Assembly: GCA_963281255.1 (NCBI GenBank)
Contig: OY725490.1
Span: forward strand, 2,170,001-2,234,000
Reading direction: 5' to 3'
DNA from: Aphrocallistes beatrix
Taxonomy: Eukaryota; Porifera; Hexactinellida; Sceptrulophora; Aphrocallistidae
Length of the DNA: 64,000 nt
Shown here one piece after another: positions 36,029 through 61,172 of this stretch. The notes beneath the pieces are model-generated. The model was not told the origin of the DNA. It worked only from the letters and a program-made list of their open reading frames with translations, and ran no database searches. The position numbers and the translations under genes are program-made. Position 1 is the first letter of the stretch, and every line of letters begins with the position of its first letter.

Positions 36029-37261
36029 TTAAAATATCAGAAGACAGTGGTTGTATCCTACTAGGATAATTCTCCCTCTTACATCTAGTGTAACACAAGT
36101 CGGCCTCTGTACGCTATCCGTGATTCTATGAACTACATCTCCTTGATGATTGAATATTATAACAACATTCAGATCGTGATCTGATATAATAAAGTTACCA
36201 GCACCATCTATACAGAATGACCAAGGAGTCTTCAAATGTTTGGAAATAGAAGTGAGGACAGGACTCTGTACCTGAGTTAGGTCATGTCCGAAGGAATAGA
36301 GGAAAGGTTTGGTGTAACTCAGTACATAAATGAACTCGCTGGTTAGTTTTATGTCATTAGGAGACTTCAGTATTCCTTGTCCAAACTGAGATTTGAATTT
36401 GAAATATTTTGAGAATATTTGAACTCTATTATTATAACAGTCACAAACAAATATTTCTCCATTAGACTGGTCGATAGTAATGCCATGTGGATTATTAAAC
36501 TGACCTTCTCCATTCCCTGGAGTTCCTATCTGTTGGAGAAAAGTGTTATTCAAATCGTAAACTAACAAACAACCACCCGTGTACTGAGATACGAATACTT
36601 TATTTTGGTAGAAATCAATGCAAACAGGTTGTTGCATCTTACCAGCTCCATCCCTATCTCCAAACTTGTACAAATATTTTCCATATTTATCGAATACTTG
36701 AACTCTGTGGTTAAGCTCCTCTGCTACGAAAATATTACCAGTTAGGTAGTGTACTGATACTCCATTAGGATAAGATAACTGTCCTTCCTCACTACCTGAT
36801 GTTGTTCCTATACTGAGTACAGAAGACACTCTTCCCTCATACTCTACTACAGGGACAGGGAGACGAGATGCTAGTCTAGTCGAGTCAGCAACAGTCACTC
36901 TACCAAAAGTACCAGCTAAACGCAATACTGTCTCATCAAACTCAACACTGACACGCTTACAATCGAACTCAGATTTAAACTTGTCATCTTCTCCTGTTAA
37001 ATGTGGGATAATTTCGGTTGATTTGGAATTTTCTTTGGCAAACTTCAGCCCTGCTTCAATTTCTGTTTGAGATTGTTTGTATTTATCTCTATCTCTCTTA
37101 TAAGTGTCTAGAATCTGTTCCAACTCAATCACAAGTTCTCTCTCCCTCTCTCTCAAGCGATCGATCAGTTCACGGAAACGAGTTTCTATCTCACGTTTTG
37201 CCTCAGAGATTTCATTTTCAAAACTTAATATTTCAGGTGGAGCTACTATAGCCGTTGCCAT
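36029..37261 (-). CDS. Coiled-coil NHL-propeller protein, copy A
   Basis: 410 residues from the MATAIV start at 37261. A splice acceptor (attag) 10 bases upstream of this ATG recurs in every copy, so the longer upstream frame is probably intron. Residues ~10-125 form a charged coiled coil (EISEAKREIETRFRELIDRL...). Residues ~150-410 are about six NHL-type propeller blades: repeats of P-x-G-V strands followed by VAEELNHRVQVFDK-like blocks. No RING or B-box precedes the coiled coil, unlike TRIM2/TRIM71. Copy A is the most diverged: it lacks about five residues at the end of the coiled coil and has STEIIPHLTGEDDK where others have SNDLNE. Partner and substrate unknown. Confidence 0.88.
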   Translation of the reverse strand: MATAIVAPPEILSFENEISEAKREIETRFRELIDRLRERERELVIELEQILDTYKRDRDKYKQSQTEIEAGLKFAKENSKSTEIIPHLTGEDDKFKSEFDCKRVSVEFDETVLRLAGTFGRVTVADSTRLASRLPVPVVEYEGRVSSVLSIGTTSGSEEGQLSYPNGVSVHYLTGNIFVAEELNHRVQVFDKYGKYLYKFGDRDGAGKMQQPVCIDFYQNKVFVSQYTGGCLLVYDLNNTFLQQIGTPGNGEGQFNNPHGITIDQSNGEIFVCDCYNNRVQIFSKYFKFKSQFGQGILKSPNDIKLTSEFIYVLSYTKPFLYSFGHDLTQVQSPVLTSISKHLKTPWSFCIDGAGNFIISDHDLNVVIIFNHQGDVVHRITDSVQRPTCVTLDVRGRIILVGYNHCLLIF

Positions 37262-38027
37262 AACGAAATTGCTAATAAATAATTTAAAAAATCGGTCGGA
37301 AGACCGATACATAAAATGTTAATATCGGAATTCATCGAGGAATACTCATCTAGAGCATTCTAAGTGTGAAATTTGGAATTACATATTAAAATACTCTAAA
37401 TTAGTGGTTGAGGTCCTACTTACATCGTTAAACAAAGCTTATGAATATATACTTAGAAAAAATGGAAGCGAGGAGATTTTTCGAAAAAATGTTTTGACAG
37501 TGTACATACATACTACATACAACGAGTATAATATAAGACTTGTTCTACTTAATACCGCAAAGTGTTTACAAGTAAGCTTTCTTAGCGCAATGGAATTATA
37601 TCTCTTTCAGATACAGATAACCTTCTACTGTAGACTGACACGGAATAAAATAGAATGGATATTCTCAGAAAATACAGTTGAATATTGTTAATATCACACA
37701 GACAATACGAATACGCAGATATTTTATCTCCTACTGTTGAGAACACTTGAATATAACTCCAGTTAGTACGAATTCTGGATAATATGGACAATTTCGACCG
37801 TCCCTTAGTACGTTCTCGGATAATAAGTTCTTCAGTTTAGTATGTACTCATTTTTCTCAACCAAAATCCATCTGAAATATAGATTTCTATGTAGTACAAA
37901 CTCGGTTAGTACCGCATATGTACTCATGGATAGTACGTACTAATAATTTCTTCCCGAAAGTATTATCCGGCTCCATACTCTGATAGATAGCATGCCGCAA
38001 AGATGTAAGGCTGTAATTCAAGCAAGG

Positions 38028-38562
38028 CAGGGTTGTTTTGATTTAAATCAAATGATTTAAATCACTTAAAAAAATCAAAATCCTGTTATTTGATTTTTTT
38101 GGAATATATTTCCTTTTAGAAATTTCTTCAATGTTTCTTATTTGATAAAAGTGTGATGGCTTTTGTACATTAAAAAGTTAGGAATAGATTAGGTATAGCT
38201 AAAGCAGGAAAATTAGTATTTATATACAAGCTGCTGAATACTCATAAATAATTTCTTCTAGTTCTACGTACATTAATACATACTCTAATTTTTTCGCTTT
38301 CTTCATTAATATTTATTCTAATTTTTCGTTTTCTTTCATTAAAACATTCTATTATACGTAGATAATGTTAAATTTATTCTAGAATTCTACTTGATTATGA
38401 GTAGATTAAAATAAACAGAAGACTAAATGAATTCATAGATAAAAATATATAAAAATCTAATTTAAATAAAAAAATCTGATTTAAATCAAATAAATCTGAT
38501 TTAAATCAAATAAATCATGATTTTGATTTTTTTAAAAGAATCATGATTTTTTTCCAACCCTG
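38028..38562. mobile_element. AT-rich element with CAGGGTTG termini replacing the end of copy B
   Basis: A 535-bp stretch beginning CAGGGTTG and ending CCAACCCTG (inverted termini), built of GATTTAAATCA and its inverse. By comparison with the duplicate block, it stands where about 1.15 kb (NHL C-terminus and 3-prime flank) is missing. No target duplication is visible, consistent with insertion plus deletion. A short GC-rich tag (cggcggcggcgcgg) follows at the junction. Confidence 0.7.
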
Positions 38563-38589
38563 CGGCGGCGGCGCGGAGTGAGTGAGTTG

Positions 38590-39200
38590 TACATATACAT
38601 TCCATCTTCATCGAATACTTGAACTCTGTGGTTACTTTGATCTGCTACGAAAATATCATCAGTTTGGTAGTAGTGCACTGATACTCCAGAAGGATAAGAG
38701 AACTGTCCTTCTTCACTACCTGATGTTCCTCCCACAAAGAGTACAGGAGACAATTTTCCCTCATACTCTACTACAGGGAGACGAGATGCTAGTCTAGTCG
38801 AGTCAGTAACAGTCACTCTACCAATAGTACCAGCTAAACGCAATACTGTCTCATCAAACTCAACACTGACACGCTTACAATCGAACTCCGATTTAAATTT
38901 TTCACGTTTTTCGGTGAATTTTTGGATGATTGACTCTGTGAATTCGTTAAGATCGTTTGATTTGAAATTATCTTTGGTAAACTTCAACCCTGCTTCAAGT
39001 TCTGTTAGAGATTGTTTGTGTTTATCTCTTTCTCTCTTATAAGTGTCTAGAATCTCTTCCAACTCAATCACAAGTTCTCTCTCCCTCTCTCTCAAGCGAT
39101 TGATCAGTTCACGGAAACGAATTTCTATCTCACGTTTTGCTTCAGAGATTTCATTTTCAAAATTTAATATTTCAGGTGGAGCTACTATAGCCGTTGCCAT
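38590..39200 (-). pseudogene. Coiled-coil NHL protein, copy B, truncated
   Basis: Retains the coiled coil and first blade (start MATAIV at 39200) and is nearly identical to copy D over this length (for example both have HYYQTDDIFVAD). Homology stops abruptly at 38590; the frame runs on into unrelated sequence to a stop at 38541. Only about 200 of 415 residues remain, so the propeller cannot close. If translated it would be a coiled-coil fragment that could pair with full-length paralogs. Confidence 0.85.
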
Positions 39201-39466
39201 AACGAAATTGCTAAGAATTAAACAAAAAATTAAACTAATGAACTCAGCAGGAGAATTCCTAGTGTTAGCAGAAACTAAAATTATATTTCAAAATTAACAA
39301 CTCAGGCTTAGCAGTTGATAGTGTAGTTAGTTCTTAATTAACCTTTAATGTAGAAGACTAATTGCGGACAATTCACACAGCAATGAATGAGTTCAACTCC
39401 AATCCGAATGACCAACAAAAATATGCAGAAATAAAAGCTAGCTAAAATGCACACACTTTTCTTTTG

Positions 39467-41750
39467 TCAAGGCAGGGTTATCATAAAGGGACGTGACGCC
39501 GACATGGAAACAGCAGACACAGAGGTTTCTATGAATTCCGTCCAACCTGTGTATTGGAATAAATCACTACTTTGAAACCTGAGTTGGACACATTCAGGAA
39601 GTTGGGAGATGGGTACACGGCGGGGTGTCATGTGTTTATAAAGGAGATAAAACACATTCATTGACTCGTCGGACAACAGTCCACACAGAAACCTTACGAT
39701 CATGCGGAACTGAGAGAACACGTCGTTCGTATGCACAATGAATCTCACCGACAGACACTGGTCGTGCCATTTCTACGAAGCCAGATGGCGCCAATGAACT
39801 CTTGAATGTTCAAATGAGCGAATTACCACACCTTCGTTAAGTGACACATATTCGTGCACCAGACCCAGACAGTGGCTAGTCATTTTCACACTTCAAATTT
39901 GCAGTGGCACCTTTTTGTCGGAGATCATCTCCCTCATGGTCACGCCCTGGAACTTGATAGAACCGATCTCGTGCAGACATTCCACAACGCCGCTATCCAG
40001 CTCACAGATTTCGTTCACATGCGTCAGCTCATCGAATCCCATTCGGTCCAGCTGTCGCCGTATCAGGTACAGAGTTAGCTCGTAGTAGAGTTGTGTCAGT
40101 GTGTGGATGCGAGCACCGTTATCACTTTTGAGCAGGGCAGCGAACAGGGACGCGTTCACTGGTATTAGAGACAGCTGTTTCATCTCATCGTACCGATTGA
40201 GGAGACCAGTGCACCGCTCGAACAGGGAAGTGTCTTCAAATTGCTTCTCGAAGTACAGGTCCCTCTGTGCAGGAGAGAACCCCAACACCTGGAAGAAGGT
40301 AGAGCTGTTGAAGTGGTGTGAAGTCGACACATCTGTCCAGGCGCAGTAGGATGAAGGACCGTGCCAGAGTCTGACTGGTTAGGAGGAAGAGAAGCACAGT
40401 GCACAGAGGGGACCATGGATGGATGAGAGGGCGAAAAGTGTAGTGGGACGGGTAAAAAAACTTAATTTTGGTGCCGTAGCGAAAGTGCGTTATAGCACGA
40501 CGCCCCTGGAGCACTGGAATGCTCAGAATGAATTCCAGTCCACACAGACATTCAGTGTATAATTCTATTCATTCATTTAAGGTGTACAATAAGGCAGGGG
40601 AAGCAAAAAAGTGTAAAAAAAGTGTAGAGTGACGGGTAAAAAAAATAATTTCGGGGCCGAGTTTTAGCACGACGCCCCTGGAGCAATGGAATGTTCAGAA
40701 TGAATTCTAGTCTACACAGACATCCAGTGTATAATTCTGATGGGTATACAGTAGAACTCGGTTATACTAATCTGTGTGGCAGCAGCATTGAAGAGCAATA
40801 CCCTAGCCCTCCCTCTAACATACCTGCACCTGCCATGTCTAGCATCAGGTACTTAGCGTGAGATTGTGTTTCTACGTCTGTACATTATCAATGTCTAGCT
40901 TGATGACATTCCTAGCGTGCTGGAGTGTCTCCATGTGCTCTCCTCTAGACAGCTCCATTCGCACCAGCAAGGTCTCGAACTCAGAAGTAGTCCTCTCTCT
41001 GCACACTGAATGGTGTCCTAGAGCCATTCCTGCGAAAACTAACGCGTTTCTTTCCAGCAAGATTTCAGCAGTGAGCATATACTCTCACAGAGCTGATGCC
41101 GGATGAGCTGGTCTGAACTATCGATTAACTCTGACTTGGCTACAGAGTACACTGACCTGAGTAGCAGTCAGCCCTCTGACATCCCGAGTAGCTTCCCTCT
41201 TCTCCCTTTCCCGCCATGTCCGCCAGAGTGTCCGTGGAGCTCCGATGTGTTTGGAGCTGATCAGTCCTCCCGCGAGCTCTGCCAGTCTCCTCGGACTTCA
41301 GACTCAGCTTGCTGGTGCAGCTTTGTCTGTCTCGCGTGCGGAGAGACTCAGCTCCTTCCTGGCCTCGCAGTGCAGTCCTACGCCACCCACGACGCAAGGC
41401 CTGACTGTCCTGGCTGAGTCCGCTTCTAGGAAGACTCTCTGAGCTGTGCTGGCAGACGGGTGAGAGGAGCTACAGGAGGGAGAGGAGACCGCTGCTCCAA
41501 CTCGACTCGAACAGTTCAGCAGGAGAGCTCCTGTGGATGAGTGGGCGGGACAGTTCCAGACAGATGTGAATGGAAGAGTGGACATATCTCGTAGCCTCCT
41601 TTTCCACGTGTGGGGTCTGCCTGGTAAGAAGAGCAACCACTTGACAAGTCTGAAGTTGGCACTGGCGGCAGAGCGACTGTGTGTGACCCGAGTTTGAAGC
41701 TGTGGACACACTGGATGGGGACCAATACCTCTGACTTCAATCAAAAATTG
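39467..41750 (-). pseudogene. Decayed NLR-like (NACHT) gene, copy 1
   Basis: Separate minus-strand segments resemble the region after the NACHT ATPase in animal NLR proteins: 40330-39893 (FFQVLGFSPAQRDLYFEKQF, then IPVNASLFAALLKSD and LTQLYYELTLYLIRRQL) and 39748-39467 (RFLCGLLSDESMNVFYLLYK). A GC-rich TPR-like helix region is at 41078-40872. The pieces are in different frames, and no Walker A motif was found. Compared with copy 2 at 47330-49620 the donor after LDI is changed from GT to GA. NLRs are cytosolic immune sensors. Identification is by motif memory and is moderate only. A ~180-base internal direct repeat lies at about 40490-40740. Confidence 0.5.
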
Positions 41751-42216
41751 TCTCAGAATTATAAAAGTCGAATCAGGTCCAACTTGAGAATAGAGTCAAA
41801 TCTAAATTGTATACAAAGCCGAATGAATACAAATTCATGGGAATATTAATACAAATTAGAAACCATTTTGTTGTTCATAATAATTGAAAGTTCAAGAATC
41901 ACATTTCTATCTTCTTCAGCTGTATTCTTTTTATCGTACATTTCACAACTAAACTGTATAAAGTTAAACTCTAAACATTGAATTTGAAAAGTAAATCTTA
42001 TTATAATTGAGATCGAGAATAAGAAAACTAAATACAGGAACGACTAATGTCCTGCATTAAGTAAATTAGAAAGATCAAACTAAATGCAGCAAAACATATA
42101 GGATTAATAGTAAAATATGAAATCAGTTATTCTAAACGTTAGTGTGAAAACAAAACTAAATAAAAATATTGAAATTGAAATAAAGGAAAAGTATCTCAAA
42201 CAACATTCAATCAGTG

Positions 42217-43461
42217 TCAAAATATCAGAAGACGATGGTCACTGCACACAAGGATAATACTCCCTCTTGCATCTAGTGTGACACAAGCCGGTGCGAATAC
42301 GCTATCCGTAATTATATGAACTACATCTCCTTCATGATTGAATATTATAACAACATTCTGATCGTAATCTGATATAATAAAGTTACCAGCACCATCTATA
42401 CAGAATGACCAAGGATATTTCAAATGTTTGGAAATAGAAGTGAGGACAGGACTCTGTATCTGAGTTAGGTCATGTCTGAATGAATAGAGGAAAGGTTTGT
42501 TGTAACTAAGTACATAAATGAACTCGCTGGTTAGTTTTATGTCAGTAGGAGACTTCAGTATTCCTTGTCCGAACTGAGAATTGAATTGGAAATCTTTTGA
42601 GAATATTTGAATTCTATTGTTTCTATGGTCACATACAAATATTTCTCCATTAGACTGATTGATAGTAATGCCATATGGATTATTAAACTGACCTTCATTC
42701 CCTGGAGTTCCTATCTGTTGGAGAAAAGTGCCATTCAAATCGTAAACTAACAAACAACCACCCGCGCTCTGAGATACGAATACTTTATTTTGGTAGAAAT
42801 CAATACAAAGAGGATGTTTCATCTTACCAGCTCCATTTATATCTCCAAACTTGTATAAATACTTTCCATCTTTATCGAACACTTGAACTCTGTTGTTACC
42901 TTGATCTGCTACGAAAATATTACCAGTTAGGTAGTGTACTGATACTCCAAAAGGTTCGGAGAACTGTCCTTCCTCAAAACCTGATATTCCTCCTATACTG
43001 AGTACAGAATACACTTTTCCCTCATACTTTACTACAGGGAGACGAGATGCTAGTCTAGTCGAGTCAGTAACAGTCACTCTACCAATAGTACCAGCTAAAC
43101 GCAATACTGTCTCATCAAACTCAACACTGACACACTTACAATCGAACTCAGATTTAAACTTTTCACATTTTTCTGTTAATTGTTGGATAATCGAACCGCT
43201 CAATTCGTTAAGATCGTTGGATTGGAAATTTTCTTTGGCAAACTTCAACCCTGCTTCAAGTTCTGTTAGAGATTGTTTGTGTTTATCTCTTTCTCTCTTA
43301 TAAGTGTCTAGAATCTGTTCCAACTCAATCACGAGTTCTCTCTCCCTCTCTCTCAAGCGATTGATCAGTTCACGGAAACGAGTTTCTATCTCAAGTTTTG
43401 CTTCAGAGATTTCATTTTCAAAACTTAATATTTCAGGTGGAGCTACTATAGCCGTTGCCAT
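42217..43461 (-). CDS. Coiled-coil NHL-propeller protein, copy C
   Basis: 414 residues from MATAIV at 43461; acceptor ttcttag lies 11 bases upstream. Same layout as copy A. Loop differences: VADQGNNRV, SQSAGGCLL, CDHRNNRIQ, SDYDQN, and CSDHRL where the others have VG-x-NH. One Gly is missing in TPGNEGQF compared with TPGNGEGQF in the rest. Frame intact. Confidence 0.88.
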   Translation of the reverse strand: MATAIVAPPEILSFENEISEAKLEIETRFRELINRLRERERELVIELEQILDTYKRERDKHKQSLTELEAGLKFAKENFQSNDLNELSGSIIQQLTEKCEKFKSEFDCKCVSVEFDETVLRLAGTIGRVTVTDSTRLASRLPVVKYEGKVYSVLSIGGISGFEEGQFSEPFGVSVHYLTGNIFVADQGNNRVQVFDKDGKYLYKFGDINGAGKMKHPLCIDFYQNKVFVSQSAGGCLLVYDLNGTFLQQIGTPGNEGQFNNPYGITINQSNGEIFVCDHRNNRIQIFSKDFQFNSQFGQGILKSPTDIKLTSEFIYVLSYNKPFLYSFRHDLTQIQSPVLTSISKHLKYPWSFCIDGAGNFIISDYDQNVVIIFNHEGDVVHIITDSVFAPACVTLDARGSIILVCSDHRLLIF

Positions 43462-43504
43462 AGCACAAATTGCTAAGAAAGAATTGACAAAAATTAAAAT
43501 CAAA

Positions 43505-45808: not shown

Positions 45809-47059
45809 CTAAAATATCAGAAGACGGTGGTTTTCGCCTACTATGATAATTCTCCCTCTTGCATCTAGTGTGACACCCATCGGTTTCCGTACGCTACCCG
45901 TGATTCTATGAACTACATCTCCTTGATGATTGAATATTATAACAACATTCTGTTTGTAATCTGATATAATAAAGTTACCAGCACCATCTATAAAAAATGA
46001 ACAAGGATAGCTCAAATGTTTGGTAATAGAAGTGAGGACAGGACTCTGTATCTGAGTTAGGTCATGTTCGAAGGAATAAAGGAAAGGTTTAGTGTTACTC
46101 AGTACATAAATGAACTCGCTAGTTAGTTTTATGTCAGTAGGAGACTCCAGTATTCCTTTTCCAAACTGAGACTTGAATTGGAAATCTTTTGAGAATATTT
46201 GAACTCTATTATTACCACGGTCACATACAAATATTTCTCCATTAGACTGATTGATAGTAATGCCATATGGATTATTAAACTGACTTTCTCCATTCCCTGG
46301 AGTTCCTATCTGTTGGAGAAAAGTTCCATTCAAATCGTAAACTAACAAACAACCACCCGTGTACTGAGATACGAATACTTTATTTTGATAGAAATCAACA
46401 CGAACAGGATTTTTCATCTTACCAGCTCCATCTCTATCTCCAAATTTGTACATATACATTCCATCTTCATCGAATACTTGAACTCTGTGGTTACTTTGAT
46501 CTGCTACGAAAATATCATCAGTTTGGTAGTAGTGCACTGATACTCCAGAAGGATAAGAGAACTGTCCTTCTTCACTACCTGATGTTCCTCCCACAAAGAG
46601 TACAGGAGACAATTTTCCCTCATACTCTACTACAGGGAGACGAGATGCTAGTCTAGTCGAGTCAGTAACAGTCACTCTACCAATAGTACCAGCTAAACGC
46701 AATACTGTCTCATCAAACTCAACACTGACACGCTTACAATCGAACTCCGATTTAAATTTTTCACGTTTTTCGGTGAATTTTTGGATGATTGACTCTGTGA
46801 ATTCGTTAAGATCGTTTGATTTGAAATTATCTTTGGCAAACTTCAACCCTGCTTCAAGTTCTGTTAGAGATTGTTTGTGTTTATCTCTTTCTCTCTTATA
46901 AGTGTCTAGAATCTGTTCCAACTCAATCACAAGTTCTCTCTCCCTCTCTCTCAAGCGATTGATCAGTTCACAGAAACGAATTTCTATCTCACGTTTTGCT
47001 TTAGAGATTTCATTTTCAAAATTTAATATTTCAGGTGAAACTACTATAGCCGTTGCCAT
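45809..47059 (-). CDS. Coiled-coil NHL-propeller protein, copy D
   Basis: 416 residues from MATAIV. Closest to copy B. Full coiled coil and about six blades. Loop differences: HYYQTDDIFVADQSNHRV (two residues longer than others), KMKNPVRVDF, CDRGNNRVQ, ILESPT, HLSYPCSFFID, SDYKQN, VGENH. Frame intact; belongs to the right-hand segmental duplicate with the NLR-like copy 2 upstream of it. Confidence 0.88.
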   Translation of the reverse strand: MATAIVVSPEILNFENEISKAKREIEIRFCELINRLRERERELVIELEQILDTYKRERDKHKQSLTELEAGLKFAKDNFKSNDLNEFTESIIQKFTEKREKFKSEFDCKRVSVEFDETVLRLAGTIGRVTVTDSTRLASRLPVVEYEGKLSPVLFVGGTSGSEEGQFSYPSGVSVHYYQTDDIFVADQSNHRVQVFDEDGMYMYKFGDRDGAGKMKNPVRVDFYQNKVFVSQYTGGCLLVYDLNGTFLQQIGTPGNGESQFNNPYGITINQSNGEIFVCDRGNNRVQIFSKDFQFKSQFGKGILESPTDIKLTSEFIYVLSNTKPFLYSFEHDLTQIQSPVLTSITKHLSYPCSFFIDGAGNFIISDYKQNVVIIFNHQGDVVHRITGSVRKPMGVTLDARGRIIIVGENHRLLIF

Positions 47060-47329: not shown

Positions 47330-49620
47330 TAAAGGGTCGTGACGCAGACATGGGAATAGCAGACACAGAGGTTTCTGTGAATTCCGTTCAACCTGTGTAT
47401 TGGAATAAATCACTACTTTGAAACCTGAGTTGGACACATTCAGGAAGTTGGGAGATGGGTACACGGCGGGGTGTCATGTGTTTATAAATGAGATAAAACA
47501 CATTCATTGACTCGTCGGACAACAGTCCACACAGAAACCTTACGATCATGCGGAACTGAGAGAACACGTCGTACGTATGCACAATGAATCTCACGGACAG
47601 ACACTGGTCGTGCCATTTCTACGAAGCCAGATGGCGCCAATGAACTCTTGAATGTTCAAATGAGCGAATTACCACACCTTCGTTAAGTCACACATATTCT
47701 CCTCTCTCACATATTCGTGCACCAGACCCAGACAGTGGCTAGTCATTTTCACACTTCAAATTTGCAGTGGCACCTTTTTGTCGGAGATCATCTCCCTCAT
47801 GGTCACGCCCTGGAACGCGATAGAACCGATCTCGTGCAGACATTCCACAACGCCGCTATCAGCTCACAGATTTCGTTCACTTGCGTCAGCTAATCGAATC
47901 CCATTCGGTCCAGCTGTCGCCGTATCAGGTACAGAGTTAGCTCGTAGTAGAGTTGTGTCAGTGTGTGGATGCGAGTACCATCATCACTTTTGAGCAGGGC
48001 AGCGAACAGGGACGCGTTCACTGGAATCAGAGACAGCTGTTTCATCTCATCGTACCGATTGAGGAGACCAGTGCACCGCTCGAACAAGGAAGTGTCTTCA
48101 AATTGCTTCTCGAAGTACAGGTCCCTCTGTGCAGGAGAGAACCCCAACACCTGGAAGAAGGTAGAGCTGTTGAAGTGGTGTGAAGTCGACACACCTGTCC
48201 AGGCGCAGTAGGATGAAGGACCGTGCCAGAGTCTGACTGGTTAGGAGGAAGAGAAACAGAGCACAGAGGAGACCATGGATGGATGAAAGGGCGAAAAGTG
48301 TAGTGGGACGGGTAAAAAAACTTAATTTTGGTGCCGTAGCGAAACTGCGTTATAGCACGACGCCCCTGGAGCACTGGAATGCTCAGAATGAATTCCAGTC
48401 CACACAGACATTCAGTGTATAATTCTATTCATTCATTTAAGGTGTACAATAAGGCAGGGGAAGCAAAAAAGTGTAAAAAAAGTGTAGAGTGACGGGTAAA
48501 AAAACTAATTTCGGGGCCGAGTTTTAGCACGACGCCCCTGGAGCAATGGAATTCTTCAGAATGAATTCCAGTCTACACAGACATCCAGTGTATAATTCTG
48601 ATGGCTATACAGTATAACTCGGTTATACTAATCTGTGTGGCAGCAGCATTGAAGAGCAGTACCCTAGCTCCTCACTCTAACATACCTGCACCTGCCATGT
48701 TTAGCATCAGGTACTTAGCGTGAGATTGTGTTTCTACGCCTGTACATTACCAATGTCTAGCTTGATGACATTCCTAGCGTGCTGGAGTGTCTCCAAGTGC
48801 TCTCCTCTAGACAGCTCCAATCGCACCAGCAAGATCTCGAACTCAGAATTAGTCCTCTCTCTGCCCACTGAATGGTGTCCTAGAGCCATTCCTGCGAAAA
48901 CTAACGCGTTTCTTTCCAGCAAGATTTCAGCAGTGAGCATGGATACCCTCACAGAGCTGATGGCGGATGAGCTGGTCTGAACTATGGATTAACTCTGACT
49001 TGGCTACAGAGTACACTGACCTGAGTAGCAGTCAGCCTCTGACATCCGAGTAGCTTCCCTCTTCTCCCTTTCCCGCCATGTCCGCTAGAGTGTCCGTGGA
49101 GCTCCGATGTGTTTGGAGCTGATCAGTCCTCTCGCGAGCTCTGCCAGTCTCCTCGGACTTCAGACTCAGCTTGCTGGTGCAGCTTTGTCTGTCTCGCGTG
49201 CGGAGAGACTCAGCTCCTTCCTGGCCTCGCAGTGCAGTCCTACGCCACCCACGACGCAAGGCCTGACTGTCCTGGCTGAGTCCGCTTCTAGGAAGACTCT
49301 CTGAGCTGTGCTGGCAGACGGGTGAGAGGAGCTGCAGGAGGGAGAGGAGACCGCTGCTCCAACTCGACTCGAACAGTTCAGCAGGACGAGCTCCTGTGGA
49401 TGAGTGGGCGGGACAGTTCCAGACAGATGTGAATGGAAGAGCGGACATATCTCGTAGCCTCCTCTTCCACGTGTGGGGTCTGGCCTGGTCAGAGGAGCGA
49501 CCACTTGACAGGTCTGAAGTTGGCACTAGAGGCAGAGCTCCGCGTGCACTGTGACCTGAGTGTGAAGCTGTGGACACACTGGGTGTGGACTAACACCTTA
49601 TAAAAGTCGAGAAGAATTAT
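47330..49620 (-). pseudogene. Decayed NLR-like (NACHT) gene, copy 2
   Basis: Duplicate of 39467-41750. Segments: TPR-like helices at 48976-48734 (GEHLETLQHARNVIKLDIG followed by a plausible donor gtaatg), the NACHT-following helical region at 48192-47890, which here ends early at a stop (DRMGFD) where copy 1 continues for 45 more residues, and 47594-47388. Small insertions and deletions distinguish the copies, so they decayed independently after duplication. No P-loop seen. Confidence 0.5.
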
Positions 49621-50049: not shown

Positions 50050-50328
50050 TAAGTCACCGTGGTCCAGTGACGAATTTTAGTAAGAAAGCGTGACGGAACC
50101 TTAAGATTTGCGGTCGATTACCGCAGACTAAACGCGGTGACGAAAAGAGATGAATACAGCTTACCAATCCTCAAGCAATTTTCGAATGTCTGGCAGATGA
50201 TACTTCTCAAAATTGGACATCTCAGCATACTGGTCCATTCCAATTCAGCCTGAGGACATCGAGAAGACAGCATTCCACACTCCAAGGGGCTTATATGAGA
50301 TTAATGTCATGCCGTTTGGTCTGTGCAA
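50050..50328 (+). pseudogene. Ty3/Gypsy reverse-transcriptase fragment
   Basis: Plus-strand pieces of a reverse transcriptase finger/palm: FAVDYRRLNAVTKRDEYSLP near 50110-50165, a frame change, then IQPEDIEKTAFHTPRGLYEI up to VMPFGLCN. The fragment stops exactly where NHL copy E begins, so it marks the break that removed the end of copy E. Confidence 0.75.
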
Positions 50329-51420
50329 TATAATAAAGTTACCAGCACCATCTATACAGAATGACCAAGGATACTTCAAATGTTTGGAAATAGAAGTGAG
50401 GACAGGACTCTGTATCGGAGTTAGGTCATGTCTGAATGAATAGAGGAAAGGTTTGGTGCTACTCAGTACATAAATGAACTCGCTGGTTAGTTTTATGTCA
50501 GTAGGATATTTCAGTATTTCTTGTCCGAACTGAGACTTGAATTGGAAATCTTTTGAGAATACTTGAACTCTACTATTGCCTCTGTCACATACAAATATTT
50601 CTCCATTAGACTGATTTATAGCAATGCCATATGGATTATTAAACTGACTTTCTCCATTCCCTGGAGTTCCTATCTGTTGGAGAAAAGTGCCATTCAAATC
50701 GTAAACTAACAAACAACCACCCGCGTACTGAGATACGAATACTTTGTTTTGGTAGAAATCAATACAAACTGGATCATTCATCTTACCAGCTCCATCTCTA
50801 TCTCCAAACTTGTACAAATACTTTCCAACTTTATCGAATACTTGAACTCTGTTGTTACTTGAATCTGCTACGAAAATATTACCAGTTAAGTAGTGTACTG
50901 ATACTCCATAAGGACAAGAGAACTGTCCTTCCTTTCCACCTGATGTTCCTCTTATACTGAGTAGAGGAGACACTCTTCCCTCATACTCTACTACAGGGAG
51001 ACGAGATGCTAGTCTAGTCGAGTCAGTAACAGTCACTCTACCAATAGTACCAGCTAAACGCAATACTGTCTCATCAAATTCAACACTGACACGCTTACAA
51101 TCGAACTCAGATTTAAACCTTTCGTGTTTAGCTGTTAATTGTTGGATAATCGAATCGCTCAATTCGTTAAGATCGTTCGATTTGAAATTTTCTTTGGCAA
51201 ACTTCAACCCTGCTTCAAGTTCTGTTAGAGATTGTTTGTGTTTCTCTCTTTCTCTCTTATAAGTGTCTAGAATCTGTTCCAACTCAATCACAAGTTCTCT
51301 CTCCCTCTCTCTCAAGCGATTGATCAGTTCACGGAAACGAGTTTCTATCTCACGTTTTGCCTCGGAGATCTGATTTTTAAAATTTAATATTTCAGGTGGA
51401 GCTACTATAGCCGTTGCCAT
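50245..51420 (-). pseudogene. Coiled-coil NHL protein, copy E, fused to antisense retrotransposon sequence
   Basis: Start MATAIV at 51420. Coiled coil and most of the propeller are intact to FCIDGAGNFII (position ~50329). The frame then runs into the reverse strand of the reverse-transcriptase fragment (29 foreign residues) and stops at 50245. The final blade, which should close the propeller by pairing with the N-terminal strand, is lost, so the protein is probably unstable. Loops: VADSSNNRV, KMNDPV, SQYAGG, CDRGNSRVQ. Confidence 0.85.
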
Positions 51421-52902: not shown

Positions 52903-54159
52903 TCAATCAGTGTTAAATATCAGAAGACGGTGATTGAATCCTACTATGATAATTCTCCCTCTTGCATCTAGTGTGACACCCATCGGTAACTGCACGCCAT
53001 CCGTGATCCTATGAACTACATCTCCTTGATGATTGAATATTATAACAGCATTCTGAATGTAGTCTGATATAATTAAGTTACCAGCACCATCTATACAGAA
53101 TGAACAAGGATCCTTCAAATGGTTGGAAATAGAAGTGAGGACAGGACTCTGTACCTGAGTTAGGTCATGTCTGAATGAATAGAGGAAATGTTTGGTGCTA
53201 CTCAGTACATAAATGAACTCGCTAGTTAGTTTTATGTCAGTAGGAGACTTCAGTATTCCTTGTCCTAACTGAGACTTGAATTGGAAATCTTTTGAAAATA
53301 TTTGAACTCCTTTATTCCTCCAGTCACATACAAATATTTCTCTGTTAGAATGATTGATGGTAATGCCATGTGGCTGGTTAAACTGACCTTCTCCATTCCC
53401 TGGAGTTCCTATCTGTTGGAGAAAAGTGCCAGTCAAATCGTAAACTAACAAACAACCACCAGTGTACTGAGAAACGAATACTTTGTTTTGGAAGAAATCA
53501 ATACAAACTGGATCATTCATCTTACCAGCTCCATCTCTATCTCCAAACTTGTACAAATACTTTCCAACTTTATCGAATACTTGAACTCTGTTGTTACTTG
53601 AATCTGCTACGAAAATATTACCAGTTGGGTAGTGTACTGATACTCCATTAGGACAAGAGAACTGCCCTTCCTTACCACTTGATGTTCCTCCTATACTGAG
53701 TAGAGGAGACACTATTCCCTCATACTCTATTACAGGGAGACGAGATGCTAGTCTAGTCGAGCCAGTAACAGTCACTCTACCAATAGTACCAGCTAAACGC
53801 AATACTGTCTCATTAAATTCAACACTGACACGCTTACAATCGAACTCAGATTTAAATTTTTCACGTTTTTCGGTGAATATGTGGATGATTGACTCTGTAA
53901 ATTCGTTAAGATCGTTTGATTTGAAATTATATTTGGCAAACTTCAACCCTGCTTCAAGTTCTGTTAGAGATTGTTTGTGTTTATCTCTTTCTCTCTTATA
54001 AGTGTCTAGAATCTGTTCCAACTCAATCACAAGTTCTCTCTCCCTCTCTCTCAAGCGATTGATCAGTTCACGGAAACGAGTTTCTATCTCACGTTTTGCT
54101 TCAGATATTTCATTTTCAAAACTTAATATTTCAGGTGGAACTACTAGAGCCGTTGCCAT
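52903..54159 (-). CDS. Coiled-coil NHL-propeller protein, copy F
   Basis: 418 residues from the MATALV start at 54159; acceptor ttcttag is 11 bases upstream. Full-length. Loop differences: VADSSNNRV, KMNDPV, SQYTGG, FNQPHGI, CDWRNKGVQ, HLKDPC, SDYIQN, VGFNH. It shares the first blades with copy E almost exactly but the later blades differ, suggestive of gene conversion between copies. Ends with three extra residues (NTD). Confidence 0.88.
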   Translation of the reverse strand: MATALVVPPEILSFENEISEAKREIETRFRELINRLRERERELVIELEQILDTYKRERDKHKQSLTELEAGLKFAKYNFKSNDLNEFTESIIHIFTEKREKFKSEFDCKRVSVEFNETVLRLAGTIGRVTVTGSTRLASRLPVIEYEGIVSPLLSIGGTSSGKEGQFSCPNGVSVHYPTGNIFVADSSNNRVQVFDKVGKYLYKFGDRDGAGKMNDPVCIDFFQNKVFVSQYTGGCLLVYDLTGTFLQQIGTPGNGEGQFNQPHGITINHSNREIFVCDWRNKGVQIFSKDFQFKSQLGQGILKSPTDIKLTSEFIYVLSSTKHFLYSFRHDLTQVQSPVLTSISNHLKDPCSFCIDGAGNLIISDYIQNAVIIFNHQGDVVHRITDGVQLPMGVTLDARGRIIIVGFNHRLLIFNTD

Positions 54160-56011: not shown

Positions 56012-56342
56012 TATCAGCAAACTAAGAAAGGAACAATCTTGTATATTCCCTCTACTTCTCAAGTAAACTAACATCTTCAGAGGGATATTAGCTGAATAAA
56101 AAAAGTTCAATCAAAGCAATAGCAATCGATCGGTAAATCTTAATAGAAATGGGATCGAGAATCTCAATAGAGTAACTATTAATATCTGCATTAAGTAGAT
56201 TAGATAATATTAACTAAATGGAGCAAACATAAAGAATAATAATAAAATATGAAATCAGTATTCTAAACGTTAGTGTGGAAACAAAACTAAATAAGATAAA
56301 AGTAGAATAAAGAAAAGTATCTCAAACAACATTCAATCAGAG

Positions 56343-57590
56343 TTAAAACATCAGAAGACGATGGTTGTATCCTACTAGGATAATTCTCCCTCTTGCATCT
56401 AGTGTGACACCCATCGGTTGCTGTAGGCCATACGTGATTCTATGAACTACATCTCCTTGATGATTGAATATTATAACAGCATTCTGATTATGATCTGATA
56501 AAATGAAGTTATCAGCACCATCTATACAGAATGACCAAGGATATTTCAAATGCTTGGAAATAGAAGTGAGGACAGGACTCTGTACCTGAGTTAGGTCATG
56601 TCTGAATGAATATAAGAAAGGTTTGGTGTAACTAAGTACATAAATGAACTCGCTGGTTAGTTTTATGTCAGTAGGATACTTCAGTATTCCTTGTCCGAAC
56701 TGAGATTTGAATTGGAAATCTTTTGAGAATATTTGAACTCTATTATTGCTTCTGTCACATACAAATATTTCTCCATTAGACTGATTGATAGTAATGCCAT
56801 GTGGGTTAATAAACTGACCTTCTCCATTCCCTGGAGTTCCTATCTGTTGGAGAAAAGTACCATTCAAATCGTAAACTAATAAACAACCACCTACGTTCTG
56901 AGATACGAATACTTTATTTTGATAGAAATCAATACAAAGAGGATTTTTCATCTTACCAGCTCCATCTCTATCTCCGAACTTGTACAAATACTTTCCATCT
57001 TTATCGAATACTTGAACTCTGTAGTTACTTAAATCTGCTACGAAAATATTACCAGTCAGGTAGTGTACTGATACTCCAGCAGGATGATAGAACTTTCCTT
57101 CCTTTCCACTTGATGTCACTCCTATACTGAGTACAGGAGCCACTTTTCCCTCATACTCTACTACAGGGAGACGAGATACTAGTCTAGTCGAGTCACTGAC
57201 AGTCACTCTACCAATAGTACCAGCTAAACGCAATACTGTCTCATCAAACTCAACACTGACACGCTTACAATCGAACTCAGATTTAAACTTTTCACGTTTT
57301 TCTGTTAACTTTTTGATGATCGACTCTGTAAATTCGTTAAGGTCGTTTGATTTGAAATTTTCTTTGGCAAACTTCAACCCTGCTTCAAGTTCTGTTAGAA
57401 ATTGTTTGTGTTTATCTCTTTCTCTCTTATAAGTGTCTAGAATCTGTTCCAACTCAATCACAAGTTCTCTCTCCCTCTCTCTCAAGCGATTGATCAGTTC
57501 ACGGAAACGAGTTTCTATCTCACGTTTTGCTTCAGAGATTTCATTTTCAAAACTTAATATGTCAGATGGAGCTACTATAGCCGTTGCCAT
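56343..57590 (-). CDS. Coiled-coil NHL-propeller protein, copy G
   Basis: 415 residues from MATAIV at 57590. Upstream the frame stays open by chance for 29 codons; the conserved acceptor (gtttag, 10 bases before ATG) and comparison with the other copies favour the inner start. Loop differences: KFYHPAGV, VADLSNYRV, SQNVGGCLL, FINPHGI, CDRSNNRVQ, LSDHNQN, YGLQQP. Frame intact. Confidence 0.88.
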   Translation of the reverse strand: MATAIVAPSDILSFENEISEAKREIETRFRELINRLRERERELVIELEQILDTYKRERDKHKQFLTELEAGLKFAKENFKSNDLNEFTESIIKKLTEKREKFKSEFDCKRVSVEFDETVLRLAGTIGRVTVSDSTRLVSRLPVVEYEGKVAPVLSIGVTSSGKEGKFYHPAGVSVHYLTGNIFVADLSNYRVQVFDKDGKYLYKFGDRDGAGKMKNPLCIDFYQNKVFVSQNVGGCLLVYDLNGTFLQQIGTPGNGEGQFINPHGITINQSNGEIFVCDRSNNRVQIFSKDFQFKSQFGQGILKYPTDIKLTSEFIYVLSYTKPFLYSFRHDLTQVQSPVLTSISKHLKYPWSFCIDGADNFILSDHNQNAVIIFNHQGDVVHRITYGLQQPMGVTLDARGRIILVGYNHRLLMF

Positions 57591-59694
57591 AACACAAATT
57601 CTAAACAGATGGTAATGAGTTAAATCGTTGGAGGATTTAAGAAATATGTCTATCCGATTCACGCTTATCTGAACCATTATAAATTATTCGGTTAATACTA
57701 CTTGGATAAGACGTACTTTTTTTATCAAAATAAAATGAATCTTCGCATTAAGTGCAAAATTTTCTTTTTTCCTACCGAAGAAATCAACAATGCACAGTCA
57801 ATTGCAATATTTCCCATTTAACGCAAACGAATATTCGTTAGGATGTAAATTCAATGGTTTACGAGATATTCGACAAATTACCAAATGTGACCAATATGAT
57901 AAATTGTCTAATAATTCTCTAATAAAACGACCTGAAAATCACTAAATTTGACCCAAATATAACCTGTTGCGCAATCATTTGATGACTAATCTAAATTTTA
58001 ACAACGGATATGGGTGCTTTGACACCATATTTATATATGCTGGTAATACATTCCTAAGCTCTATTGTGCTTTGTTAATGATTTAAGGCAGCTCATGTATT
58101 TCTTCAACCATCTTCTACTGCATCCCTAGTGCCAAATTCGCAAGTTACTCTGAGGCCTTATTATAGTAGGATATGAGTAGGCATTGCAGTTGATAGTGTA
58201 GATAAACATGTTATGTAGTAGAAGACCAATTGTGGACAATTCAGATGTCAATGAGTTCAACTCCAATCCGAACGGCTGAACAAAAATGTGCAATATATTA
58301 AAGCTAGCCTATACACTAGACACATAAAGTAAACAATTCTCAAAATTAAACTAGAAACTAGTTTTCAACTATTGATATGGGTGTAGATTTCAAATATCGC
58401 ATTATAAATCTATATGAAGAATAGTTTGTTCATTCTTGGTTACAATACTCGTACATCACATATGTGACTAATTATACTAGTTTGAAACAATGTCAGAAAC
58501 TATATTCCTCATTCAAACTAATAATATGCAAAACCGTTATAATCGAAGGGGTCCCAGGCACCCACAGGGCGACTCTGCGGATACGAAGTATTGCTAGCCG
58601 CAAAATCTCAAAATAATCTCGAGGATGTTTTCGATTAGGCAACAAGAACCGATACCTGCGTACGCGAAATTTATTTAGGAAAAGCGAATCAGTCAAATAT
58701 CATTCTAGAAGGAAGTTACATCTTAAAATCCCTCGCATCGAATGTATGAGAGACAAACTAACACAGAGTCATGAAGCTCCATTGTTAATGAATTCTCGCT
58801 ACAAGACGAACGAGTATAATATAAGGCTTTTCATTTGCACAGAGTTTACTCATCATGAATACCGAAATAATGTACCCTCTTTATTATTCGTTCTAGGTGT
58901 GACATGTACTATTTATAATTTAGTGTAAAAATAATGAACTCCCACAGTATACCAAATGCAATACAAATGTACACATGTCACTATCACACCTGTGTGTGCG
59001 AGACTCCATCTACACATCGACATGATTAGATTTCAAATCGGACTTAAATTCATAAAGTTATTAATTAACACTTAAGTACGTACGACACGGCGAATCCGCT
59101 GCTAAAGTAACAACTAAAAACAATCGCAAATCAAAAAGTAAATCTTGATAGAATTGGGATCGAGAATAACAAAACTAAATACAGAAACGACTAACGGCTA
59201 TGGCTCCACTAAGTTCTGAGCTCAGACGAAAATGTCGACTCATCATGGAATTATTAAGTCATTGTCACCTTTTTTATAATTAGACATTTCAGTTATTCGA
59301 CTATAACTCAACCATTTTGGTGATAGAAGGCTGAAATTTTAATAGCATGTGTATGTTTAATACTCCTCACATATGATGTAACTATCATAAAAAATAATGA
59401 CACATCACTCTGTTATGACGTCATCATTCCGCATCAAAAATTGTAAAAATTGATAAATTTGGCGATTTTTCGAGCGATATCGATTATAACAGTAAGACAG
59501 ACGTATTCAGAAATGTTATCTCCCATATCACTAAATAATGGCGACCACAGGCGCCCAAAGGCCGCCTCCAGCGGACACAAAGTGTCCGCCAACCGCGCAG
59601 CGCAAACAAGTGAAGGGCGCTTGTAATAATAAATATGGAAATACTATTCTAAATGTTAGTGTAAAAAAATACTAAATAAGAAGACATAGTACAT
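57591..59694. other. Intergenic between copies G and H
   Basis: No intact gene. A segment at 58493-58620 is closely similar to 61659-61770; both can be read on the minus strand as a short conserved end (RRVALWVP...ISLNEEYSF) but start in unrelated sequence, so this looks like a shared decayed fragment. An insertion absent from the other flanks spans about 59190-59630 and contains the perfect hairpin GCGGACAC-AAA-GTGTCCGC. Confidence 0.45.
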
Positions 59695-59886
59695 CAGGGT
59701 ATTATACAGCCTTCCAGAGATACGCTCCTAATCTAAAATTTCTAAAATTTCATACGCCTAAATTGCTAAATAACATTATAATGTTGGGTAAATTGGGTAT
59801 TTTTCTGAATTTTTACGCTCCTAAACACATTGCGGCTTAAAATCATACGCCTAAAGGAGCGTCTCGCGCTCCTAGATAATTCCTTG
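59695..59886. mobile_element. hAT-type MITE, copy 2
   Basis: 192 bp, exactly as long as and reverse-oriented to 18385-18576, flanked by a perfect 8-base duplication tagtacat (59687-59694, 59887-59894). Ends CAGGGTATTATACAG and inverse CAAGGAATTATCTAG. Sits 41 bases past the stop codon of copy H, so possibly in its 3-prime UTR. Confidence 0.92.
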
Positions 59887-59927
59887 TAGTACATACAAAG
59901 GGAAAGTACCTCAATCAACAATCAGTG

Positions 59928-61172
59928 TCAAAATATCAGAAGGTGGTTGTATCCTACTACGATAATTCTCCCTCTTGCATCTAGTGTGACACCTATCGGT
60001 TTCTGTACGCTATCCGTGATTCTATGAACTACATCTCCTTGATGATTGAAAATTATAACAGCATTCAGATCGTAATCTGATATAATAAAGTTACCAGCAC
60101 CATCTATAAAAAATGACCAAGGAGTCTTCAAATGTTTGGAAATAGAAGTGAGGACAGGACTCTGTATCTGAGTTAGGTCATGTCTGAAAGAATAGAGGAA
60201 AGGTTTGGTGTAACTAAGTACATAAATGAACTCGCTAGTTAGTTTTATGTCAATAGGAAAATTCAGTATTCCTTGTCCGAACTGAGACTTGAATTGGAAA
60301 TCTTTTGAGAATATTTGAACTCTATTATTATAACAGTCACATACAAATATTTCTCCATTAGACTGATTGACAGTAATGCCATATGGATCATTAAATTGAC
60401 CTTCTCCATTCCCTGGAGTTCCTATCTGTTGGAGAAAAATGCCATTTAAATCGTAAACTAACAAACAACCACCAGTGTACTGAGATACGAATACTTTATT
60501 TTGGTGGAAATCAACACGAACAGGATGCTTCATCTTACCAGCTCCATCTCTATCTCCAAACTTGAACAAATACTTTCCATCTTTATCGAATACTTGAACT
60601 CTGTTGTTACTTGAATCTGCTACGAAAATATTACCAGTTAAGTTGTGTACTGATACTCCAGAAGGACAAGAGAACTGTCCTTCCTTTCCACCTGATGTTC
60701 CTCCTATACTGAGTACAGGAGACACTTTTCCCTCATACTCTACTACAGGGAGACGAGATGCTAGTCTAGTCGAGTCAGTAACAGTCACTCTACCAATAGT
60801 ACCAGCTAAACGCAATACTGTCTCATCAAACTCAACACTGACACGCTTACAATCGAACTCAGATTTAAACTTTTCACGTTTTTCTGTTAATTTTTGGATG
60901 ATCGACTCTGTAAATTCGTTAAGATCGTTTGATTTGAAATTTTCTTTAGCAAACTTCAAACCTGCTTCAAGTTCTGTTAGAGATTGTTTGTGTTTATCTC
61001 TTTCTCTCTTATAAGTGTCTAGAATCTGCTCCAACTCAATCACAAGTTCTCTCTCCCTCTCTCTCAAGCGATTGATCAGTTCACGGAAACGAGTTCCTAC
61101 CTCACGTTTTGCTTCAGAGATTTCATTTTCAAAACTTAATATTTCAGGTGGAGCTACTATAGCGGTTGCCAT
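59928..61172 (-). CDS. Coiled-coil NHL-propeller protein, copy H
   Basis: 414 residues from MATAIV; acceptor ttcttag 10 bases upstream. Full-length. Loop differences: VADSSNNRV with FKFGD, KMKHPVRVDF, SQYTGG, FNDPYGI, CDCYNNRVQ (shared with A), ILNFPI, HLKTPW (shared with A), SDYDLN, VGYNHLL. The mixture of A-like and D-like loops suggests exchange among copies. Confidence 0.88.
   Translation of the reverse strand: MATAIVAPPEILSFENEISEAKREVGTRFRELINRLRERERELVIELEQILDTYKRERDKHKQSLTELEAGLKFAKENFKSNDLNEFTESIIQKLTEKREKFKSEFDCKRVSVEFDETVLRLAGTIGRVTVTDSTRLASRLPVVEYEGKVSPVLSIGGTSGGKEGQFSCPSGVSVHNLTGNIFVADSSNNRVQVFDKDGKYLFKFGDRDGAGKMKHPVRVDFHQNKVFVSQYTGGCLLVYDLNGIFLQQIGTPGNGEGQFNDPYGITVNQSNGEIFVCDCYNNRVQIFSKDFQFKSQFGQGILNFPIDIKLTSEFIYVLSYTKPFLYSFRHDLTQIQSPVLTSISKHLKTPWSFFIDGAGNFIISDYDLNAVIIFNHQGDVVHRITDSVQKPIGVTLDARGRIIVVGYNHLLIF

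What the first reader, a model, noticed from the sequence alone, without database searches (positions are those of the whole stretch)
36029..61172. Tandem coiled-coil/NHL family whose variation is concentrated in propeller loops
Seen: eight copies share a nearly fixed coiled coil and blade strands (for example GTFLQQIGTPGN and LTSEFIYVLS), while differences fall at repeated positions: the residues before P-x-G-V, the two residues in VAD-xx-N-x-R, SQ-xx-GG, CD-xx-N-x-R, SD-xx-x-N, and VG-x-NH. Known: in NHL propellers such as Brat, loops of this kind lie on the top surface that binds RNA. Inference: the array may be a diversified recognition family with one variable binding face on a constant multimerising stalk. 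The lack of RING and B-box means it is not an ordinary TRIM. Nearby NLR-like remnants and a TRAF-like gene fit an immune-type neighbourhood, weakly.
Basis: partly seen in the sequence, partly recalled or inferred. Interest (0 to 1): 0.8.

Follow-up and report, generated by a model that had tools for sequence, protein, structure and literature searches.

The report
Hypervariable-face NHL propeller gene family
This (probably sponge) genome carries hundreds of related intronless genes for ring-shaped proteins whose close copies differ most at the residues of one binding face, a pattern expected of a germline repertoire of recognition proteins.

Summary
The window has eight minus-strand copies (six full, two truncated) of a ~414-aa intronless protein: coiled coil, linker, six-bladed NHL propeller, no RING or B-box. 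Genome searches found at least 245 related loci, about 185 with an open frame of 395 aa or more.

In four paralogue groups (18, 15, 22, 19 copies) codon models with an omega>1 class win (2dlnL 167, 113, 233, 86); simulated nulls reached 1.9, or 16 with recombination. Of the selected sites 17/17, 9/9, 12/13 and 8/11 fall on 24 positions, four per blade, on the face that binds RNA in LIN41; dN/dS there is 1.7-2.2, against 0.35-0.61 in coiled coil and remaining propeller. Thirteen of 14 published LIN41-RNA contacts lie on the same 24. The face is near-neutral, unlike LIN41's.

Best reading: a cytosolic diversified recognition family shuffled by gene conversion; ligand and effector unknown, immune function not shown. 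It works like the fungal HNWD propellers but on a TRIM-NHL-type scaffold, probably in a glass sponge (inferred).

The parts
36029..37261 (-). copy 1, full length (410 aa), coiled coil + NHL propeller
38541..39200 (-). copy 2, truncated after blade 1; 100% identical to copy 4 over 300-nt tracts
42217..43461 (-). copy 3, full length (414 aa)
45809..47059 (-). copy 4, full length (416 aa)
50245..51420 (-). copy 5, last blade lost (391 aa)
52903..54159 (-). copy 6, full length (418 aa)
56343..57590 (-). copy 7, full length (415 aa)
59928..61172 (-). copy 8, full length (414 aa); reference numbering of this report
60849..61172 (-). copy 8: coiled coil, residues 1-108 (helices 9-78 and 86-108)
   Evidence: AlphaFold2 model, (low confidence here, pLDDT mostly 50-70); dN/dS 0.59 in group W
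60714..60848 (-). copy 8: linker, residues 109-153, with low synonymous diversity in groups W, A and B
   Evidence: pLDDT mostly below 50
59931..60713 (-). copy 8: six-bladed NHL propeller, residues 154-414, holding the 24 face positions 169,171,187,188,216,218,232,233,262,264,280,281,305,307,321,322,350,352,367,368,391,393,408,409
   Evidence: (Foldseek best hits Thin and TRIM71 NHL)

Best explanation
This is a germline-encoded, diversified family of cytosolic recognition proteins. Each copy pairs a conserved TRIM-like coiled coil (probably a dimerising stalk; inferred) with an NHL propeller whose top face carries a 24-residue recognition surface, four residues in each of six blades. Tandem duplication and gene conversion, including exchange of the propeller between different coiled-coil types near the linker, shuffle segments among copies; positive selection then keeps new residue combinations on the face (both supported by sequence). 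The face most likely binds fast-changing non-self or otherwise variable molecules, more likely protein or peptide than RNA, and multimerisation gives avidity or signalling (both inferred). The lack of RING and B-box means any effector must act in trans or by clustering (inferred).
For: Codon models with an omega>1 class win in all four groups: 2dlnL 167, 113, 233 and 86; null simulations on the W tree reached at most 1.9 without recombination (12 runs) and 16.0 with four-segment recombination (12 runs). Selected sites fall on the 24 face positions in 17/17, 9/9, 12/13 and 8/11 cases. With segment-specific trees 40 of 49 selected sites do (W 16/20, A 9/10, B 11/11, D 4/8), and the 12 propeller-segment LRTs are 7.6-61. 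dN/dS at these positions against their own synonymous rate is 1.73-2.17 (LRT 7.0-20.2), against 0.35-0.59 in the coiled coil and 0.43-0.61 in the bottom loops. 13 of 14 LIN41-RNA contacts (PMC5908797, passages) map to the same 24 positions. The 74 analysed copies have 74 different fingerprints (three copies identical to L029 had been collapsed). Recombination: PHI-type test, 0 of 500 permutations at or below observed in each group. Y+W+H+S make up 42% of the face (23 of its 24 positions counted) against 13% of the rest of the propeller. Copy 8 has no strongly hydrophobic stretch: highest 19-residue Kyte-Doolittle mean 1.05.
Against: No expression, allelic, ligand or infection data exist here, so 'recognition of non-self' is inferred from the evolutionary pattern alone. 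Synonymous rate is about twofold raised at the face codons in W, A and B (1.99, 1.98, 1.83; 0.99 in D), so mutational or model effects may contribute. The linker also has dN/dS above 1 in W (1.25, LRT 1.0) and A (1.64, LRT 5.1), at very low rates. Groups A and B share one propeller pool and are not independent; the A-D overlap of selected sites is only 2 (p 0.02). Not every selected site is on the face: 261 in B, and 143, 168, 236 in D; segment-wise also 149, 293, 336, 349 in W, 95 in A, 143, 255, 390, 410 in D. Two segment LRTs (A blades 1-2, 12.3; D blades 3-4, 7.6) lie inside the range of the recombinant null. That the 24 residues form one exposed face rests on fold topology and the LIN41 contacts; I had no coordinates to measure it.
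Confidence: 0.58

Rival explanations
1. Diversified RNA-binding repressors: each propeller reads a different RNA motif or hairpin (Brat/LIN41 style), for example transposon or viral RNAs, and the coiled coil multimerises a repressor.
For: The selected positions are the RNA-contact positions of LIN41: 13 of 14 (PMC5908797 passages). The nearest solved relatives are Thin, TRIM71, TRIM2/3 and Brat NHL domains. Aromatic residues on the face could stack on bases.
Against: The 24 face residues have mean net charge +0.6, +0.7, +0.6 and +1.6 in W, A, B and D (single copies up to +5) against +8 for TRIM71; Lys is 2.9% of the face against 6.3% of the rest, though Arg is 5.8% against 2.5%. Basic residues outside the 24 positions were not modelled.
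Confidence: 0.2
2. Self or allorecognition: the face binds a polymorphic self partner or other family members, as fungal HNWD propellers do, and variation marks individuals.
For: Same geometry and similar dynamics as the Podospora NWD family (PMC1805685 passages): two selected pairs per blade in the d-a loop and b-c turn, with repeats exchanged among copies.
Against: No allelic data and no partner known. The family is far larger than the 10-member NWD family.
Confidence: 0.13
3. Relaxed constraint: loops drift freely after duplication and recombination creates a false signal of selection.
For: Recombination is extensive and inflates the test somewhat (up to 16).
Against: Observed whole-gene LRTs are 86-233; the bottom AB/CD loops of the same propellers have dN/dS 0.43-0.61 and no whole-gene hits; sites recur at the same columns in separate groups, e.g. 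W against D 6 shared, p 8e-7.
Confidence: 0.04
4. Targeted mutation or conversion hot spots at these codons diversify the face, with selection secondary.
For: Synonymous rate at the face codons is 1.99 (W), 1.98 (A) and 1.83 (B) relative to the gene average.
Against: It is 0.99 in D, where dN/dS at the face is still 2.06. A single-step codon model can also misread double hits as synonymous change.
Confidence: 0.05

Closest known systems
Podospora anserina HNWD/NWD family (het-d, het-e; NACHT + WD40 propeller)
   Same: A propeller with two selected residue pairs per blade, one in the d-a loop flanking a constrained residue and one in the b-c turn; units exchanged between family members; a recognition role (PMC1805685 passages).
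   Different: WD40 rather than NHL repeats; the propeller is attached to a NACHT domain; repeats are near-identical and homogenise within a gene. Here the blades of one protein differ from each other, the stalk is a coiled coil, there is no NACHT, and the family has at least 245 loci.
TRIM71/LIN41, Brat, Thin/TRIM32, TRIM2/3 (TRIM-NHL proteins)
   Same: Same six-bladed NHL fold (Foldseek E 2e-20 to Thin) after a coiled coil; the face positions are those that contact RNA in LIN41.
   Different: No RING or B-box in the three copies tested, single-exon, massively duplicated, top face under diversifying selection and near-neutral in charge. In LIN41 orthologues most RNA-contact residues are conserved (PMC5908797 passage).
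Coral tachylectin-2 (five-bladed propeller lectin under positive selection)
   Same: An animal propeller with positively selected sites and a suggested immune role (PMC2880987 passages).
   Different: There the 12 sites showed no clustering and none matched a sugar-binding residue in the passage seen; here they sit on one face at known ligand-contact positions.
Tandem single-exon AIG1-domain cluster of the glass sponge Aphrocallistes vastus
   Same: Large lineage-specific array, mostly single-exon genes, with a suspected recognition role (PMC10282587 passages).
   Different: AIG1 domains, not a propeller; that paper's main text has 0 occurrences of 'NHL'.

Membership tests
NHL-repeat propeller | NHL repeats forming a six-bladed propeller | tested here: met
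   PF01436 over cut-off, E 2e-16 to 2e-18 in the three copies tested; AlphaFold2 six blades at pLDDT about 90; Foldseek TMt about 0.8 to NHL domains
TRIM-NHL | RING finger | tested here: not met
   none in Pfam at E up to 1 in three copies
TRIM-NHL | B-box | tested here: not met
   none in the three copies; 24 B-box matches in the whole genome at E<=0.001, none at C3:2.1-2.25 Mb
TRIM-NHL | coiled coil before the NHL domain | tested here: met
   helices 9-78 and 86-108 in the model at low confidence; only weak sub-threshold PML_CC and TRIM_CC hits
TRIM-NHL | antiparallel coiled-coil dimer and ubiquitin-ligase activity | not testable with these tools
   no multimer modelling or assay
HNWD-like diversified propeller (works like) | positive selection on d-a and b-c top-face positions of each blade | tested here: met
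   blade 4 is the weakest, with only 321 (whole-gene) and also 307 (segment-wise) selected
HNWD-like diversified propeller (works like) | exchange of sequence between paralogues | tested here: met
   PHI-type test, 0 of 500 permutations in each of four groups; A and B propellers share one synonymous pool
HNWD-like diversified propeller (membership) | WD40 repeats fused to NACHT | tested here: not met
   NHL repeats and no NACHT in the three copies

The most novel reading that the evidence does not exclude
An early-branching animal, probably a glass sponge, runs a large germline repertoire of cytosolic NHL-propeller receptors (hundreds of genes). A 24-residue fingerprint on one face is diversified by selection and blade shuffling, and the same propeller pool is attached to different coiled-coil types through a nearly invariant linker: an animal counterpart of the fungal HNWD recognition system, reached independently on a TRIM-like scaffold.
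Probability: 0.45. Interest if true: 0.9.

Novelty: new variant of a known kind. Interest (0 to 1): 0.77.

Why it matters
Diversified recognition repertoires known to me in animals use Ig, LRR (VLR, NLR), fibrinogen, SRCR or lectin folds (recalled). An NHL repertoire with selection focused on the positions that contact RNA in LIN41 would add a fold, show convergence with fungal WD40 allorecognition genes, and supply a natural library of hundreds of propellers with altered binding faces for testing how NHL domains choose ligands. It also offers a concrete, testable candidate for non-self recognition in a syncytial sponge (organism inferred).

Tried and rejected
A first fit of the codon models left the tree scale unoptimised because of the simplex start; it was replaced, with the same conclusion. 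The first simulation run hit the time limit; it was rerun with 12 + 12 replicates, on the W tree only. In five of those 24 null runs the fitted omega was 1.0-1.2 and 34-60 sites passed posterior 0.95, so site lists mean something only when the likelihood ratio is large, as it is here. The stricter grid model with free synonymous rate gives 9, 10, 11 and 10 sites above 0.9 in W, A, B, D, of which 8, 10, 11 and 6 are on the 24 positions by my count from those lists.

Immune neighbourhood: the broken block at 39.5-41.8 kb and its duplicate at 47.4-49.6 kb look NLR-like by eye, but the frames tested gave no Pfam hit and the one sent to the PDB search only E = 1.1 to NLRP3, so they do not support the reading. 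The genome itself has 94 NACHT matches (94 of 176 candidates scored). A second structure job on the multi-TM gene family gave a poor model (pLDDT 68) and no fold match at E <= 0.001.

Organism: not given. Genome of 100.5 Mb in 28 contigs, 19 homeodomain matches, no Wnt match (but its control was empty, so this does not show absence), many single-exon frames. Published glass sponges have 20 homeodomain proteins in Oopsacas and many single-exon genes in Aphrocallistes (passages); that glass sponges lack Wnt is from a title and the start of an abstract. I infer a glass sponge, moderately sure.

Literature: (held open-access library only) listed no report of an NHL family under diversifying selection; I saw the 15 best of 59 and of 289 papers. 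This does not exclude papers further down or outside that library. Papers seen as passages only: PMC9070667, PMC5908797, PMC1805685, PMC3503706, PMC10282587, PMC10280926, PMC8242945, PMC2880987; no paper was read whole.

Rows dropped before counts: of 90 loci L009-L098, 65 held an intact frame of at least 395 aa; three identical to L029 were collapsed; seven (L028, L061, L074, L076, L087, L090, L097) were left out of the three groups, which I drew by eye on a midpoint-rooted tree. Of 21 group-D sequences (L001 and 20 fetched), L107 was cut short by my coordinates and L118 was left out as most divergent; 19 were used. Position 391 is a gap in D, so D has 23 of the 24 positions. The 24-position set was fixed after seeing the hits, so the p-values are partly post hoc; the LIN41 contacts are the outside check.
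Full report
WHAT IS THERE. Eight copies of one intronless gene lie on the minus strand between 36029 and 61172. Six are full length (410-418 aa from a shared MATA- start), 38541-39200 ends after blade 1, and 50245-51420 has lost the last blade. Each full protein is a coiled coil (residues 1-108), a linker (109-153) and an NHL propeller (154-414). In the three copies tested, Pfam finds NHL (E 2e-16 to 2e-18) and no RING or B-box. The AlphaFold2 model of copy 8, made from seven window sequences, has propeller pLDDT mostly around 90, while the coiled coil and linker are low. Foldseek places it with Thin (E 2e-20), TRIM71, Brat and TRIM2/3 NHL domains, as does sequence search. Copy 8 has no strongly hydrophobic stretch (highest 19-residue mean 1.05), so a cytosolic site is inferred.

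FAMILY SIZE. The window lies in a 100.5 Mb genome of 28 contigs. One window copy as query gave 101 matches, which make 98 loci; a cousin on contig 8 found 52 further loci, 36 with an uninterrupted frame of at least 395 aa, and a third subfamily 95 loci, 84 with such a frame. Of 90 fetched loci of the first set, 65 were intact from an MAT-like start. This makes at least 245 loci and about 185 intact genes; each search scores a capped list, so these are lower bounds. By eye on a midpoint-rooted tree, the first set has three main groups: W (18 copies, mainly the window region of contig 3), A (15, contig 12) and B (22, mainly contig 12). Group D (19) comes from contigs 8, 14, 16 and 18.

SELECTION. 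I wrote a codon model (MG94 type, HKY, F3x4) and compared a nearly neutral with a positive-selection mixture. Twice the log-likelihood difference is 167 (W), 113 (A), 233 (B) and 86 (D), with omega 4.3, 5.1, 5.2 and 2.2 on 8, 4, 4 and 12% of codons. Twelve null simulations on the W tree gave at most 1.9; twelve with four separately evolving segments gave at most 16.0. Because recombination is real here, I refitted four segments with their own trees: the 12 propeller segments gave 7.6-61 (two of them, 12.3 and 7.6, inside the range of the recombinant null), the four N-terminal segments 0-8.2, and 40 of 49 selected sites lay on the 24 positions (W 16/20, A 9/10, B 11/11, D 4/8).

WHERE IT FALLS. 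The selected sites form a six-fold pattern: in each blade the residue before and after the P of x-P-x-G (D-A loop and start of strand A) and the two residues after D in D-x-x-N (B-C turn). In copy 8 these are 169,171,187,188 / 216,218,232,233 / 262,264,280,281 / 305,307,321,322 / 350,352,367,368 / 391,393,408,409. They hold 17 of 17 (W), 9 of 9 (A), 12 of 13 (B) and 8 of 11 (D) selected sites; blade 4 is the weakest, with 321 alone in the whole-gene runs. In whole-gene runs no hit lies in the bottom AB or CD loops; segment-wise one does, 293 in W. dN/dS over the 24 codons (23 in D), against their own synonymous rate, is 2.17, 1.73, 2.09 and 2.06; it is 0.35-0.59 in the coiled coil, 0.43-0.61 in the bottom loops and 0.45-0.52 in the rest of the propeller; the linker gives 1.25, 1.64, 0.57 and 0.40, at very low rates in W, A and B. 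In the window alone, 18 of 24 face positions show three or more residues against 19 of 390 others. The 74 analysed copies carry 74 different fingerprints, which differ pairwise at 56-70% of positions against 13-29% for the rest. That these positions are one face follows from propeller topology and the LIN41 contacts; I had no coordinates to measure exposure.

OUTSIDE CHECK. Kumari et al. 2018 (PMC5908797, passages seen) name 14 zebrafish LIN41 residues that touch or frame the RNA. Mapped through the human TRIM71 chain (offset 44; all 14 residues matched in identity), 13 of 14 fall on these same 24 positions and the fourteenth is next to one (hypergeometric p 3e-15). So the selected residues occupy known ligand-contact positions of an NHL propeller. 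The match in place does not make RNA the ligand: the 24 residues average a net charge of +0.6 to +1.6 per copy against +8 in TRIM71. The face (23 positions counted) has 15.4% Tyr, 3.1% Trp and 16.9% Ser, against 3.6, 0.0 and 7.1% in the rest of the propeller, with Lys halved but Arg doubled. That mix resembles antibody binding loops (recalled), so I lean to protein or peptide ligands, weakly.

HOW DIVERSITY ARISES. A PHI-type test finds recombination in all four groups (0 of 500 permutations at or below observed). In W, A and B, pairwise distances of different segments of the same proteins correlate poorly (-0.32 to 0.44; D 0.50-0.59). Most tellingly, A and B differ at 50% of same-residue codons in residues 1-36 but at only 0.8-1.5% in residues 109-140 and 8-16% in the propeller, about the same as within either group (up to 150 sampled pairs per comparison). 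One propeller pool is thus attached to two coiled-coil types, with exchange near the linker. The scarcity of synonymous change in the linker (alpha 0.31, 0.08, 0.26 in W, A, B; 1.31 in D) could mark a conversion hot spot or a DNA-level constraint; I cannot tell which.

MECHANISM. Shown by sequence: family size, architecture, face selection, recombination. Inferred: cytosolic location, a multimeric stalk, recognition of changing ligands, effector in trans. The closest working analogue is the Podospora NWD family, where two codon pairs per WD40 unit, one in the d-a loop flanking a constrained residue and one in the b-c turn, are positively selected and units are exchanged between genes (PMC1805685, passages). 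The present family meets both working features but is not a member: NHL not WD40, and no NACHT. Nor is it a TRIM by definition (no RING, no B-box), though Marin 2012 (PMC3503706, passages) counts relatives that lack part of the motif, such as Brat and malin, as TRIM-like.

LIMITS. My code is not PAML or HyPhy. A and B share propellers and count as one radiation. The synonymous rate at the 24 codons is about doubled in W, A and B. No expression, population or binding data were available. The organism is inferred to be a glass sponge from 19 homeodomain matches, single-exon frames and genome size, compared with passages on Oopsacas and Aphrocallistes, whose main texts have 0 occurrences of 'NHL'.

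Noticed in passing
28922-30046 (-), 30546-31667 (-), 32846-33970 (+), 62027-62953 (-): A second multigene family flanks the array: proteins of up to ~374 aa in single open frames with about seven long hydrophobic helices, 21-30% identical to the first, no Pfam family over its cut-off in the three tested; poor model (pLDDT 68) with only insignificant GPCR-like fold hits.
   Followed up: partly
39470-41795 and 47391-49589: A duplicated, broken block between NHL copies, NLR-like by eye; the one frame tested matched NLRP3 only at E = 1.1.
   Followed up: partly
genome-wide: 94 NACHT matches at E<=0.001 (94 of 176 candidates scored), most inside single open frames of more than 1,000 aa: a large intronless NLR-like set in the same genome.
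   Followed up: no
L029-L032 (contig 12, 4253732-4265119): Four identical gene copies at exactly 3,380-bp spacing: very recent tandem duplication or an assembly effect.
   Followed up: no
contig 3, 2105738-2156303 (+) and 2206038-2248137 (-): The W arrays stand in two opposite-facing blocks either side of a gap of about 50 kb, inverted-duplication style.
   Followed up: no
residues 109-153 of copies in groups W, A and B (60714-60848 in copy 8): Synonymous diversity is low here within W and close to zero within and between A and B while flanks vary; not so in group D. Conversion hot spot or DNA-level constraint, unexplained.
   Followed up: partly
8556-13211 (-): A 1,551-aa single open frame with LRR and kinase domains over cut-off and sub-threshold COR-A and WD40 hits (LRRK-like).
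   Followed up: no
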